Positions 18,617-24,253 of a DNA stretch of 64,000 nt are shown one piece after another; position 1 is the stretch's first letter; the number at the start of each line of letters is the position of its first letter. The DNA lies in the NCBI GenBank assembly GCA_030594815.1, contig JAUVEN010000004.1, positions 1-64,000 of the forward strand, given 5' to 3'. A program made the translations under genes and the position numbers. Under the pieces are notes generated by a model. It made no database searches. It was not told the origin of the DNA and saw only the letters and a list, made by a program, of their open reading frames with translations. The DNA comes from Gammaproteobacteria bacterium. GTDB taxonomy: Bacteria; Pseudomonadota; Gammaproteobacteria; UBA6429; Thiohalophilaceae.

Positions 18617-18928
18617 GTTTTCTTCTGCTCTTGCATTTAGTAAATATTTTCTAAGTTGTTTTTCACTTCGCATAACATAAAGTATATATATTTTTTCTTT
18701 TTCAATACGATAAAAAATACGACAAGGTTCAACGATAATTTCTCGGTATCTTGAATTCTTAAATTCAGATGGTTTTCGACCAGGTTCAGGAAATTATTCA
18801 AGCCGATCTGTTGTGGAAAAAACTTTTTGGATAAGCTGTTTTGCTGCACTTGGTTTATCAAGTGCTATATATTCTGCTATTGCATCGAGATCTAATAGTG
18901 CTGGCTCAGCCCATATTATTTGAGCCAT
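18611..18928 (-). pseudogene. ParE/RelE-type toxin with an internal stop
   Basis: Reading from the ATG at 18928 gives MAQIIWAEPALLDLDAIAEY, the classic ParE opening. After DRLE an in-frame TAA at 18794-18796 interrupts the frame, which then continues as FPEPGRKPSEFKNSRYREI and IFYRIEKEKIYILYVM, the family core and C-terminus, to a final TAA at 18611. Both halves are in the same frame, so one nonsense change has inactivated the toxin unless it is a sequencing error. It overlaps the antitoxin gene by 13 bases, in the antitoxin-first order. It would inhibit gyrase or translation if intact; the family does not decide which. Confidence 0.85.
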
Positions 18929-19173
18929 TTACTCATTTTCTCCTTTGCCTCTGAATTTGTATAAACACGATCATCTCTTATCGCCGCTTCACCCCGCGCT
19001 AAACCTTCAAGGATACTCATGCGATTTTGCATCATTTCATAATCTCCAACATCAACAAGATATGCTGATGGTTGGCCATGCTCTGTTATGAGTATGGGTT
19101 CCTTAGAATCATGTAATTCAGCAAGAATCTTGGTTGCTTGGCGCTTTAGTGTAGTGACTAATTCAGTTTTCAT
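18916..19173 (-). CDS. Phd/YefM-family antitoxin
   Basis: An 85-residue antitoxin with the N-terminal Phd/YefM DNA-binding fold (KTELVTTLKRQATKILAEL, then EPILITEHGQPSAYLVDV) and a C-terminal toxin-binding tail. I choose the ATG at 19173 rather than an upstream start because it begins the conserved domain and sits just inside an 18-base palindrome that is a likely autoregulatory operator. The partner ParE-like toxin gene overlaps its end and carries a premature stop. Toxin-antitoxin pairs are common stabilising cassettes in large integrons. Confidence 0.9.
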   Translation of the reverse strand: MKTELVTTLKRQATKILAELHDSKEPILITEHGQPSAYLVDVGDYEMMQNRMSILEGLARGEAAIRDDRVYTNSEAKEKMSKWLK

Positions 19174-19176
19174 AGA

Positions 19177-19194
19177 GTGATAGCATAGTATCAC
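19177..19194. promoter_or_regulatory. Palindromic operator of the antitoxin gene
   Basis: GTGATA-GCATAG-TATCAC is a perfect six-base inverted repeat three bases upstream of the antitoxin ATG. This is the usual place for Phd/YefM autorepression. The binding itself is inferred. Confidence 0.65.
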
Positions 19195-19219
19195 TTTCCA
19201 GGTATGCAAGTATTTTGAC

Positions 19220-19707: not shown

Positions 19708-19845
19708 AATGTTGCCTCTCTTTGCTGAGTGTTTAAGTGAAATTGTTGAGATTTTACGCGAAAATACAAGTTTTGGTGCTAACGTTTAGCTAAGGGGCGC
19801 ATGTCTTTTATGCGTGATCTTCCCCCGAAAAAATGGACAGGGTAA

Positions 19846-20724
19846 TCAATGAAGTTGACGTCGTTCAAATTCATTGGGCGAACAATAATTTAATGATGAA
19901 TGTAACCGAGTTCGATTATAAAAATTCACAATATAATCCATTATCGAATTTCGTAATATATCTACTGTAGCGTATTTATTACCGTTGATCCATTCACCTT
20001 TAAGTGAATGAAAGAAGGACTCCATGTGAGCATTGTCTGTGCAATGACCAGGACGGTTCATACTGGGTTGAATATTATGTTGAGCAAGTAAATCACGGTA
20101 TGCGCCAGCCGCGTATTCAACCCCTCGGTCTGAATGAAAAAGCATATCCGCTTTAGGTTTTCGATTTTGTAATGCTTTCCTCAACGCGCTTATTGTTAAT
20201 TCTTTTTTTCGATAACTTTCAAGAGACCAACCAATAATTTTACGTGAGTATAAATCCATCACGACAGAGAGATACCACCAGCGTTTTTGATGCCAAAGAT
20301 AAGTGACATCACCCACCCAAACTTGATTGGTGCGAGTTGGCTTTGGTGTTGTTAATCGTTTGTTCTTTGACCTTTTAATTACTTCAACAATACTCGGTGC
20401 ACGTTGCTTACGTGTATGAATTCGCCCAACAATACATTCAGCCTGCATAATAGGTGCGACGCGGTTCTCGCTAACGTGAATACCTTGTTGGTGTAATTTT
20501 TTTGTAATGCGTGGACTGCCGTAAATACCAAAACTTTTCACATGAATATGTTTGATTTTTTTGGCAAGTGACTGATTGGCTTTTGCTCGTGCGCTGATCT
20601 TACGGTCACGCCATGTGTAATAACCACTACGTGAAACATCATAAATTTTACACAGGCAGACTGTACACTCATCGTCGTATCTTGTTTTATGAATGCGTAG
20701 ACGTCTTGTTTTGTTTTGAAGCAA
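19846..20724 (-). CDS. IS3-family transposase OrfB (DDE integrase domain)
   Basis: A 292-residue retroviral-integrase-type catalytic domain. An HTH_21 region (SGYYTWRDRK) comes first. It is followed by the DDE triad in VWVGDVTYL, LFHSDRGVEYAA and DNAHMESFFHSLKGE, and ends HSSLNYCSPNEFE. It is normally produced as an OrfAB fusion by -1 frameshifting in the A run upstream of its annotated start; the frame extends upstream into KKASTLLQNKTRR. The catalytic part itself looks intact. Confidence 0.95.
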   Translation of the reverse strand: MLQNKTRRLRIHKTRYDDECTVCLCKIYDVSRSGYYTWRDRKISARAKANQSLAKKIKHIHVKSFGIYGSPRITKKLHQQGIHVSENRVAPIMQAECIVGRIHTRKQRAPSIVEVIKRSKNKRLTTPKPTRTNQVWVGDVTYLWHQKRWWYLSVVMDLYSRKIIGWSLESYRKKELTISALRKALQNRKPKADMLFHSDRGVEYAAGAYRDLLAQHNIQPSMNRPGHCTDNAHMESFFHSLKGEWINGNKYATVDILRNSIMDYIVNFYNRTRLHSSLNYCSPNEFERRQLH

Positions 20725-21022
20725 AGTCGATGCTTTTTTTTAGCATCTTATTTTCCATTTCGAGGCGTTTGATTCGCTTTTCGAATTGACGTAGTTGTTT
20801 TTGTTCAGTCACTTTCTCCTCCAATTCCTTGAGATTTTCTTCAACAGCTCCTTTTAACAGACCTTCACGGTGTTCTTTTTTCTAGCGCGACAACATAAAA
20901 GGGTGTATTTCTAATGCCAGAGCGACATCTTTGGTTTGAAACGCTGAGTAATTTGAAAGTTCTACTGCGGCTATTTTAAAGCTCTTTGTATATCTTAAAT
21001 GCTTTTCTATAGTGGTTTTCAT
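20687..21022 (-). pseudogene. IS3-family OrfA with a nonsense codon
   Basis: Reading from the ATG at 21022 gives MKTTIEKHLRYTKSFKIAAV, a helix-turn-helix (AFQTKDVALALEIHPFMLSR) and then TAG at 20882-20884 where tryptophan or tyrosine is expected (LSR-stop-KKEHREG). The frame then continues through a leucine-zipper coiled coil (LKELEEKVTEQKQLRQFEK) to TAA at 20687. One base change would restore it. The frameshift signal to orfB lies near its end. Confidence 0.88.
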
Positions 21023-21108
21023 ATGACACTTTCTCCGTTAGGTTTTAGTGTCCAGTAATTCGGGGGAAGTCTCGCGTCCCGTGCGTAGCACTTTACTTGA
21101 GCGCCTTG

Positions 21109-21489
21109 TTATGTATTTAACCATTCTCTAGCTTTTTCTTCAGATTCAAAAAACTCTGTTGCCCATGATACATTGTTACTAGACAGCTCAAAGTAAACCC
21201 TATACATATTGGTTAAACCTTTTATTACTTTTTGATTTGCAACAACAGCGATTTTAATATTAGGGTTGATTTCAAAAAACTTAGCATCCTGTTCAGCTAT
21301 GTTACGAATTCCATTCGATGAAACAGGATAAGATTTAATGTCATTGAATGTATGTAAATGGTATTTAGTTATGTGTATATCCATTAATAAAAACATACTT
21401 TTACGTAATGTTCTTAAGTCTTCATCTGTAAAGGCTTCAGTAAAAATAGAATGAACCCCTTCATTTTCAAGATGTAGTTGATATGGCAT
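21109..21489 (-). CDS. SpoIIAA/STAS-like cassette protein A
   Basis: A 126-residue soluble protein with the pattern of the SpoIIAA-like (STAS-related) family. It has an N-terminal strand pair, HTFNDIKSYPVSSNGIRNIAEQD, IKIAVVANQKVIKGLTNMYRVYFE and an acidic C-terminal helix EEKAREWL. It is recognisably related to the protein encoded at 23145-23537, which shares the SNGIRNIA/TEGIKNIG, AVVAN/AIIVSSN and MYR..F/MYEAYR landmarks. The function is unknown. Its stop codon falls in an attC core, so it is a cassette gene. Confidence 0.75.
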   Translation of the reverse strand: MPYQLHLENEGVHSIFTEAFTDEDLRTLRKSMFLLMDIHITKYHLHTFNDIKSYPVSSNGIRNIAEQDAKFFEINPNIKIAVVANQKVIKGLTNMYRVYFELSSNNVSWATEFFESEEKAREWLNT

Positions 21490-21606
21490 TATTTTTCCTA
21501 ATTTTATACATAACGTTACAAGTAAGTGGCAACTAAAAACGTGCAGAGCACGGCTTTTAGTTGTCCAAATGAGCGAGAGCGAATGTTCTTGACTGCCTTA
21601 TAGTTG

Positions 21607-23102
21607 GACAGCTCCATTGAATCCACAATTTACCTTTTACCTGATTTAGTGGAACATGCTTCTGTTGATCACGAATATTGATTGCCAAACATTTAATGTT
21701 CATAACAAGACGTTCGGATCAGCAGACAGCATTTTGTTCCAAAACGCATACTCAGGGATCTTCGTGCACCGACTATCTATAAGACCTGCGAGAAACAAAT
21801 TCCAAGCACATTCCAAAACTGACTTTACACCCAGGAGGTGTGATATGAAAGAGTTTGATATCAATGATTTTTCCGTGTTGGTTGGTATAGACTGGGCAGA
21901 TAAAAAAATGATGTTTGTGAACATGTTATAGGTACATCAAAATATCACTATTCAGTTATATTGAGTAAGCCTGAGTCTCTGCATGAGTGGGTTATGTCAT
22001 TAAAAAAAAGGTATCCGGATCGTACTATCGCAGTGGCTTGTGAACTCACAAAAGGGCCTCTTATTTATGCCTTAAGCAAATATAACCATCTTATACTTTT
22101 TCAATTAATCCATCGACTGTTGCAAAATATAGAAAAGCATTTATCCATAGCGGCGCAAAAAATGATCCGAGTGATGCTTTTTTCCAAACAGAAATATTAG
22201 AACAACATATGGATAAGCTTGATGTCATATGGCCTGATTCAGTTAACGTAAGAGCTTTATCACAGCTTCTGGAATATCGTCGTAAAGTTGTTCAAGATAG
22301 AGTTGATTTATCTAATCGTATTACCGCAACGCTGAAAAATTACTATCCTCAAGTACTTGATTGGTTTAAAGAAAAAGACACTCGCTTGTTTTGTGATTTT
22401 CTGGAAAAGTGGCCATCATTAGACGCAGTAAAAAAAGCGCGTAAACAAACTATAATGAATTTTTTAAAACAACATCATTCACGATATCTTGAGGTTAATG
22501 AAAGAAGAGTTGAAGAAATTAAATCTGCTATGGCATTAACAGAAGACCTTGGCGTGATTGAACCGAATAAAATAATGATAGAAGTATTAATACCACAATT
22601 AAAATGCTTACTTGAATCAATTGAGCGACTCGATAAAGAAATTAAACAACGTTATAAAAAGCAAAGTGAAAGAAAAATATTTGATAGTTTACCGGGTGCC
22701 GGACCTCAATTAGCGCCACGAATATTTGTCGCCTTTGGTTCTGACCGAACACGATATCAGTCAGCGAATGAAATACAAAAATATGCGGGTATCGCACCTG
22801 TAATTGAGCAGAGCGGGCAAAAGAAGTGGACGCATTGGCGGTACAGTTGTCCAAAATTTTTAAGGCAGACGTTCGTAGAATGGGCAGGACAATCGATTCG
22901 TTATTCATTTTGGGCGAGAGCGTATTATGAACAACAACTTAGCAAGGGCAAACCCCATAATCGATTATTCGTTCATTGGCTTTTAAATGGATTAGAATTG
23001 TATATAAATGCTGGCAAACAAATACACCTTATGATGAGTCAAAATATTTAAAAGCATTGAAGAAGCAGGGTTCTCCGTTGCTAAAGTTTGCGGTAGACAG
23101 CT
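21607..23102 (+). mobile_element. IS110-family insertion sequence inside an attC site
   Basis: An insertion of about 1.49 kb bounded by two copies of GACAGCT (21607-21613 and 23096-23102), with no terminal inverted repeats, as expected of IS110-type elements. It encodes a DEDD transposase broken by two frameshifts. A non-coding left end of about 230 bases precedes the transposase and a short right end follows. IS110 elements with a long left end usually encode a bridge RNA there. Its orientation is opposite to the cassette genes. Exact ends are inferred from the repeat and the rejoined attC arms. Confidence 0.8.
21845..23051 (+). pseudogene. IS110-family transposase with two frameshifts
   Basis: The gene starts at ATG 21845 behind an excellent AGGAGGTG. 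The DEDD-domain opening VLVGIDWADKK is followed by a one-base deletion near 21908; restoring a C gives the expected HDVCEHVIGT. The frame then continues from about 21933 to near 22100, where a second single-base deletion occurs (expected ...NPSTVAKYRKAF). From there the frame is open to 23051, through the Transposase_20 part (DSLPGAGPQLAPRIFVAFG, then KYAGIAPVIEQSGQK). Two separate lesions make sequencing error less likely than decay, but both are near short homopolymers. Confidence 0.9.
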
Positions 23103-23144
23103 AATTTTTTACTTGTTGTCCACCTCAGGGCGTGTTGTTATGTA

Positions 23145-23537
23145 TTATTTTTGAATCCATGCAACAGCATCTTTTTCTTTTTTAAATATCCTAATCTCTT
23201 TCTTGGACTTTTTAGAAAAGCTCCTATATGCCTCGTACATTCTGGCAAGACCATACGCTAAATTAGAACTAACAATTATTGCAAGCTTCCTATTTCCATC
23301 ACTTTTGTCTGTGCTTGATGCAATTTGACCGATATTTTTAATTCCTTCTGTAGATAGTTTAAAACTTGTTACTTCACTTAAATTAACTATTTCATTGTAA
23401 TTAATATATTCAGATTTGTTTTGAATATCGTTTTGGTATTTTTTTATTGCTTTTATGAATTCAGCATCATGCGCTGTACCTTCCCATGAAGTGATAATGA
23501 GTTGGCGTTTATTATCTATATAATGTTTAGCAGGCAT
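23145..23537 (-). CDS. SpoIIAA/STAS-like cassette protein B
   Basis: A 130-residue soluble protein of the SpoIIAA/STAS-like type: ITSWEGTAHDAEFIKAIKKY, NYNEIVNLSEVTSFKLSTEG, KLAIIVSSNLAYGLARMYEAY and a C-terminal EKDAVAWIQ helix. It is related to cassette protein A (21109-21489), but the two are divergent and each sits in its own cassette. No catalytic motif is visible. The start is ATG 23537, eight codons before the conserved part. Confidence 0.75.
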   Translation of the reverse strand: MPAKHYIDNKRQLIITSWEGTAHDAEFIKAIKKYQNDIQNKSEYINYNEIVNLSEVTSFKLSTEGIKNIGQIASSTDKSDGNRKLAIIVSSNLAYGLARMYEAYRSFSKKSKKEIRIFKKEKDAVAWIQK

Positions 23538-23550
23538 AATTTATTTTCAT

Positions 23551-23641
23551 ACATAACGGTTAAGTTAACGGGCGCGAGTCTTTATTCGCGTCCGGCCCAT
23601 GCTTTTGCTTTTTATGGGCGAAGTTGAACGCCTTGTTAGGT
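23551..23641 (-). repeat. attC site of the 23636-24253 cassette (intact)
   Basis: This is the clearest site, 91 bases. The minus strand reads ACCTAAC-AAGGC-GTTCAAC, hairpin sequence, GTTAAC-TTAACC-GTTATGT. GTTCAAC pairs with GTTAAC leaving a single extrahelical base. Inner inverted repeats include CGCCCAT/ATGGGC and ACGCGA/TCGCG. The stop codon of the upstream gene lies inside ACCTAAC. Confidence 0.9.
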
Positions 23642-24253
23642 GTTTTTCGATATATCTTCATCAATATCTCTTAGCGCCTCATCAATACTTTCTGATAATA
23701 ATGTATCAAAATGACGAGCATCAGTTAATAAAATACTTGCAGCTGTCCTGCCATTATCGAATTTTACTGTAGCAGAACGTGACGCCAAATATGCTTGTTC
23801 TTCAATTTTCTTTACAACATTAATTACATAATAAGCAGAGGCAATTCTGTTTAGTAATTTATGGTTTTGTATTAAGTTTAGTTTTCCCGCAGTAGTTATA
23901 GATGCCCACAGATCAGATTTTAAAGGCTGGGTCGGAATATGAGTAGAGTCACCTTTCACACACACATGTAAACTGTTAGTAAATGATAACTCTTCCTTAA
24001 TTAGTTCTAGTAATTCTAACTCCAGTTTCCTTTCTTCTTTATTATTTTTTACTTCATCTTTATGTTTAATTGCTCTATCTATCCATAAAGCAAAAGGTAT
24101 GCCTGCTACTAATGCAGCAGAAGTTGCAAGCAACCCACTAACAACACTTTCCCAGAACACTGGACCGGGACTACAAAAACTTATATATACAATTGGTGTC
24201 GCAATAATTATTAGGACAATAACCCATAAACTATATTCTGTACTCTTTATCAT
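23636..24253 (-). CDS. Cassette-encoded membrane protein of unknown function
   Basis: A 205-residue protein with two N-terminal membrane helices (about residues 8-27 and 33-58) and a charged coiled-coil stretch (about 63-92, KHKDEVKNNKEERKLELEL). A soluble helical C-terminal domain of about 110 residues follows. I recognise no family; the layout resembles small membrane-anchored proteins of accessory and defence islands, but there is no enzymatic motif. It is the first gene of the visible cassette array, and its stop lies in the attC core. Confidence 0.7.
   Translation of the reverse strand: MIKSTEYSLWVIVLIIIATPIVYISFCSPGPVFWESVVSGLLATSAALVAGIPFALWIDRAIKHKDEVKNNKEERKLELELLELIKEELSFTNSLHVCVKGDSTHIPTQPLKSDLWASITTAGKLNLIQNHKLLNRIASAYYVINVVKKIEEQAYLASRSATVKFDNGRTAASILLTDARHFDTLLSESIDEALRDIDEDISKNT

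What the first reader, a model, noticed from the sequence alone, without database searches (positions are those of the whole stretch)
21508..23143. IS110-family element inserted in the hairpin of an attC site
Rejoining the sequence at the two GACAGCT copies (21607 and 23096) restores a continuous attC-like site whose arms ACAAGTAA and TTACTTGT match perfectly. IS1111-attC elements of the IS110 family are known to target attC sites. This one is in the same niche, but has a long left end of about 230 bases ahead of the transposase, as in bridge-RNA-encoding IS110 members. The transposase is broken by two single-base deletions.
Basis: partly seen in the sequence, partly recalled or inferred. Interest (0 to 1): 0.7.

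Follow-up and report, generated by a model that had tools for sequence, protein, structure and literature searches.

The report
RNA-guided jumping gene in integron attC
A decayed IS110-type insertion sequence sits at the edge of a gene-cassette recombination site (attC); related copies suggest that this branch carries a guide RNA aimed at attC, a target previously known for a different branch of the family.

Summary
Relatives in Pseudoalteromonas, Alteromonas, Thalassotalea and other Gammaproteobacteria fix the ends: the element is 21600-23136 (1537 bp), flanked by a shared TT core (21598-21599, 23135-23136). The GACAGCT 'repeats' are internal; the right one is the end of the transposase gene. 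The TTACTTGT 'arm' is the IS right end. The IS separates the R'' box from the rest of attC, not the hairpin. The 245-nt left end folds like a bridge RNA. One side of its target loop (TTGATTGCC) matches the left flank TTGACTGCC; the other (CATAACAAG) is the exact complement of CTTGTTATG across the core. Among 16 copies, guides match their own flanks better than exchanged flanks (p about 5e-5). Outgroup copies with other guides sit in other targets. I read this as an IS110-type lineage targeting attC, convergent with the known IS1111-attC group. I found no such report in the open-access papers searched; ISfinder could not be checked. The window copy is dead (three frame changes).

The parts
21600..23136 (+). 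IS110-type insertion sequence, 1537 bp counting one TT core
   Evidence: ends defined by aligned junctions of relatives
21598..21599 (.). TT core, left copy
   Evidence: shared by both junctions; the near-identical uninterrupted sister attC of L005 reads GCGCaTTGTTAT against GCGCtTT[IS]TTGTTAT
23135..23136 (.). TT core, right copy
   Evidence: GGGCGTG-TT-GTTA at the right ends of copies found by transposase search; one copy (L057) reads GTTATTA
21649..21800 (+). predicted bridge RNA / seekRNA region in the left end
   Evidence: fold of 21645-21825, z -3.2, 0 of 200 shuffles as stable; consensus with 7 pairs changed on both sides
21678..21686 (+). left target guide TTGATTGCC in the 5' side of the target-binding loop
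   Evidence: matches left flank TTGACTGCC, 8 of 9 plus one rU:dG
21701..21709 (+). right target guide CATAACAAG in the 3' side of the target-binding loop
   Evidence: exact reverse complement of CTTGTTATG across core and right flank of the rejoined site
21750..21757 (+). putative left donor guide ACTCAGGG
   Evidence: 7-nt CTCAGGG shared with the right end 23124-23130
21777..21783 (+). putative right donor guide CTATAAG
   Evidence: reverse complement of CTTATAG at the left junction 21597-21603
21845..23104 (+). transposase gene, broken by three frame changes (near 21905, 22105 and 22950); intact relatives exist
   Evidence: tblastn of the L004 transposase, four segments in three frames; Pfam
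23105..23136 (+). short right end of the IS
   Evidence: TGTCCACCTCAGGGCGTG conserved in about 30 copies and remnants
21508..21599 (-). attC remainder: spacer, L'', central stem, L', R' box
   Evidence: L'' AGTcAAG and L' CTTACT with extrahelical c; R' GTTATGT
23137..23143 (-). attC R'' box ACATAAC, separated from the rest of attC by the IS
   Evidence: 7 of 7 complementary to R'
23145..23537 (-). cassette ORF (weak match to DUF7793, below Pfam cut-off) whose attC is split
21109..21489 (-). next cassette ORF (weak DUF7793/SpoIIAA-like match, below cut-off)
23550..23647 (-). intact neighbouring attC of the same array (unoccupied target TTGAACGCCTTGTTAGG)

Best explanation
This is a decayed member of an IS110-type (upstream non-coding region) lineage whose left-end bridge RNA is aimed at integron attC sites. 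The target-binding loop pairs with the two strands of the attC segment that holds the start of L'', the spacer and the R'' box. The recombinase exchanges strands at a TT core. This inserts the IS in fixed position and orientation between R'' and the spacer, and parts the R'' box from the hairpin. Shown by sequence: ends, attC restoration, predicted fold, guide-flank agreement. Inferred from IS621/ISEc21 work: that the RNA is made and does the guiding, and that attC is disabled.
For: Relatives found by transposase share both ends and differ in flanks. Joining at TT gives attC with 6/6 L and 7/7 R pairs, 1 of 4000 shuffles as good. Five further copies score 11-12 of 13 (L005, L006, L009, L012, L058; 4 to 97 of 4000 shuffles as good). 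Near-empty sites: the L005 sister attC in the same array, and L053 GTCCGTTTAAGCAACTTGTTAAACGG against L011 GTCCGTTTGAGCAAC-TT..TT-GTTAAACGG. RNA fold z -3.2 with guides in one internal loop; 7 double-changed pairs. Guide-flank permutation p 5e-5 for all 16 copies, 0.01 within the attC clade under a mechanical rule and 0.003 with hand-delimited guides. Outgroups carry other guides matching other flanks. attC-clade transposases form one side of a 100/100 branch. Guide order (bottom-strand match 5' of top-strand match) and long left end are the IS110 pattern (PMC11187229, PMC11208160).
Against: No RNA or transposition data. Left flanks of L017 and L066 are not recognisable as attC, and L004, L011 and L057 score only 8-9 of 13 in the strict test. 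Within the attC clade the guide-flank signal is modest because all targets are alike. The donor guides do not vary in this clade, so they are untested by covariation. The base next to the core varies, so the exact dinucleotide could be off by one.
Confidence: 0.88

Rival explanations
1. One reading: insertion into the attC hairpin at GACAGCT, with the segment up to 23143 being attC.
For: Two 7-bp copies and two 8-nt arms exist.
Against: The right copy is the end of the transposase ORF; the sequence beyond it is conserved as IS right end in relatives at other sites; the rejoined site has no canonical L''/L' spacing, score 0.
Confidence: 0.02
2. It is a member of the known IS1111-attC group (ISKpn4, ISPst6, ISPa25).
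For: Same niche, one end of attC (PMC11187229 citing Post and Hall 2009, Tetu and Holmes 2008).
Against: Long region upstream, right end only 32 nt, no conserved subterminal inverted repeat, guide order of IS110 type, transposase barely alignable with IS1111-type IS4321. ISKpn4 itself was not available to compare.
Confidence: 0.04
3. attC location is passive: the IS lands widely, and copies survive between cassettes because that is harmless.
For: Arrays are full of IS remnants; L066 lies outside a recognisable attC.
Against: Same base position and orientation in every recognisable attC copy, and guides that match.
Confidence: 0.06

Closest known systems
IS1111-attC group (ISKpn4, ISPst6, ISPa25; IS1111 family)
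   Same: RNA-guided DEDD transposase; targets one end of integron attC sites
   Different: there the guide RNA is downstream of tnp and subterminal inverted repeats are present; here the RNA region is upstream, no such repeats, distant transposase
IS110-type elements IS621, ISEc21, ISCro4
   Same: upstream non-coding region with target loop, guide order, short right end, core dinucleotide, transposase similarity in the C-terminal domain
   Different: known targets are REP (IS621) and an IS3 transposase gene (ISEc21), not attC; transposase here about 420 aa against 328 aa for IS621
IS110 elements on Klebsiella and Cupriavidus plasmids (L054, L055; 47-50% transposase identity)
   Same: CTCAGGGCGTG right end, TATAG left end, same loop design
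   Different: other guides and other, non-attC flanks
group IIC-attC introns
   Same: also target attC sites
   Different: retroelement; mechanism unrelated (own knowledge; PMC9229058 cites them)

Membership tests
IS110 family (broad) | DEDD_Tnp_IS110 and Transposase_20 domains | tested here: met
   Transposase_20 above cut-off on the window fragment, DEDD part 27.6 of 29 bits on a broken gene; intact relative L011 above cut-off of NF033542
IS110 type | long left / short right non-coding end | tested here: met
   245 nt before tnp, 32 nt after
IS110 type | RNA with bottom-strand guide 5' of top-strand guide in one internal loop | tested here: met
   predicted only; definition from PMC11187229 and PMC11208160
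IS110 type | RNA bound by transposase, circular intermediate | not testable with these tools
   needs experiment
IS1111-attC group | conserved subterminal inverted repeats of adequate length | tested here: not met
   no repeat conserved across seven copies
IS1111-attC group | downstream long non-coding region | tested here: not met
   right end 32 nt
IS1111-attC group | IS1111-type transposase | tested here: not met
   only a 32-residue BLASTP match to IS4321 at E 0.001, branch of about 10 changes per site; ISKpn4 not compared
IS1111-attC group | insertion in attC at a fixed position and orientation | tested here: met
   whether it is the same base as ISKpn4 was not checked
attC site | R''/R' and L''/L' arms with extrahelical base and 5-6 nt spacers | tested here: met
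   13 of 13, 1 of 4000 shuffles

The most novel reading that the evidence does not exclude
Beyond convergent targeting, the insertion may not silence attC. L''/L' with the extrahelical base and R' stay intact, and the IS left end (ACTATAAGGC on the cassette strand) replaces R'' next to the spacer. IntI might then still recombine the site, so that the IS would ride along in cassette circles and colonise arrays.
Probability: 0.07. Interest if true: 0.75.

Novelty: new variant of a known kind. Interest (0 to 1): 0.5.

Why it matters
Bridge or seek RNAs make IS110/IS1111 elements programmable, but natural retargeting is documented in few cases. Here a clade with attC guides lies beside sister lineages with other guides and other targets. 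That gives a natural series for asking how guides are re-aimed, and suggests that two RNA-guided families reached attC independently. It also offers a candidate set of recombinases whose natural targets are integron cassette boundaries.

Tried and rejected
GACAGCT as target duplication. TTACTTGT/ACAAGTAA as attC arms. Rfam: no bridge RNA family hit. IS1111 membership. IMG/VR search with the transposase: no relative. An integron integrase in the same genome: only below-cut-off tyrosine recombinases, as in all 14 control genomes. Tetu and Holmes 2008 could not be read. Counting GTTA in right flanks of pattern-found copies was not used as evidence, because GTTGTTA was part of the pattern; only transposase-found copies count. 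Literature searches found only IS1111-type IS at attC.

Full report
What is there. The window lies in a genome assembly of 162 contigs; its transposase relatives are all Gammaproteobacteria or Betaproteobacteria. Between about 18.6 and 24.3 kb is a run of small minus-strand ORFs parted by attC sites. No integron integrase above cut-off was found in the genome, so it looks like a cassette cluster without integrase. The finding is the remnant of an IS110-family element in one of these attC sites.

Where the ends are. A scan with the transposase fragment gave seven loci, six of them usable relatives at 63-75% identity, and further searches added more. Those that reach the right end read ..CACCTC[A/T]GGGCGTG-TT-GTTA (L057 differs slightly and reads GTTATTA), after which sequences differ. 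All full copies read ..TT-ATAGT at the left. The window element is therefore 21600-23136. Both reader landmarks on the right fall inside it. GACAGCT at 23096 is the codons for Asp-Ser plus the first base of the stop of the transposase. TTACTTGT at 23109 is IS right end, present almost unchanged in L004, which sits in a different site.

The empty site. On the cassette strand the TT join reads ACATAAC-AAGGC-AGTcAAG ... CTTACT-TGTAAC-GTTATGT: a canonical attC with an extrahelical base and 5-6 nt spacers. A simple arm test scores 13 of 13, equalled by 1 of 4000 shuffles. L058 scores 12, and L005, L006, L009 and L012 score 11. L004 and L011 score 9 and L057 scores 8, which is not significant. L066 lies beside what reads like a ribosomal protein L36 gene. 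A sister attC in the L005 array, 98% identical over 55 nt, is uninterrupted and reads GCGCaTTGTTAT where the filled one reads GCGCtTT[IS]TTGTTAT. L053 supplies a near-empty counterpart of L011. In every recognisable attC copy the IS lies between R'' and the spacer, in the same orientation.

The RNA. The left end is 245 nt. Region 21645-21825 folds better than all of 200 shuffles, z -3.2. The alignment of ten copies gives a long stem with an internal loop, then a second hairpin; 7 pairs have double changes. The loop's 5' side in the window reads TTGATTGCC, against left flank TTGACTGCC. Its 3' side reads CATAACAAG, the complement of CTTGTTATG across the core. Other copies: L058 TTTAGGTGC against TTTAGGTTC; L005 TTGAGCGCC against TTGAGCGC; outgroup L055 TCCCGACCC against TCCCGACCC; outgroup L021 ATCGGCAC against ACCGGCAC, with a 3' guide for AAGCGG, its right flank. 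Own-flank scores exceed exchanged ones: p 5e-5 over 16 copies, p 0.01 in the attC clade under a fixed rule. The guides were delimited by hand and mechanically.

Kinship. Transposases of the attC-clade copies form one side of a 100/100 branch against outgroups with other targets. The nearest solved structures are IS621 and ISCro4 (E 2e-6 and 4e-6). IS1111-type IS4321 is hardly alignable, and no subterminal repeat is conserved. By the published criteria (PMC11187229, PMC11208160) this is IS110 type. The only attC-targeting IS described in the papers I could search are IS1111 type. The Shewanella study PMC9229058 mentions IS110 elements in integrons but reports none interrupting attC; the same ends should be looked for there.

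Mechanism. Shown by sequence: ends, target, predicted fold, guide agreement. Inferred by analogy with IS621/ISEc21: transcription, RNA binding, strand exchange at TT, circular intermediate. Likely but unshown: loss of attC function, since R'' and R' are parted by 1.5 kb. The window copy probably cannot move by its own transposase: its reading frame changes three times against L004, though assembly error cannot be excluded.

Noticed in passing
window 19819-21069: An IS3-family element (about 19834-21054, ends TGGACA..TGTCCA) sits between perfect 11-nt inverted arms CTTCCCCCGAA / TTCGGGGGAAG of another attC in the same array: this one really is in the hairpin.
   Followed up: partly
window 21109-21489 and 23145-23537 (minus): Two neighbouring cassettes encode small proteins with similar weak matches (DUF7793/SpoIIAA-like, below cut-off), possibly paralogues.
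   Followed up: no
window 18640-19209 (minus): Array also holds what looks like a toxin-antitoxin cassette (antitoxin-like ORF 18916-19209, RelE-like reading frame beside it); read by eye only.
   Followed up: no
L025, L028, L029, L031, L040, L044-L046, L049, L050, L053, L023, L052: Many remnants have lost their 5' part but keep the right end and the junction with GTTA; why the right end persists is not explained (the search pattern favours them).
   Followed up: partly
L066: One full copy on a Pseudoalteromonas plasmid lies next to what reads like rpmJ (ribosomal protein L36), not a recognisable attC, and its guide fits poorly.
   Followed up: partly
L016:12475-12498: A solitary right end in an IMG/VR 'viral' contig, without transposase.
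   Followed up: no
L054, L061, L062: Related IS110 elements, including one on a Klebsiella plasmid, carry guide TTGAGCGAG with right guide for AAGCGG; their target was not identified.
   Followed up: partly
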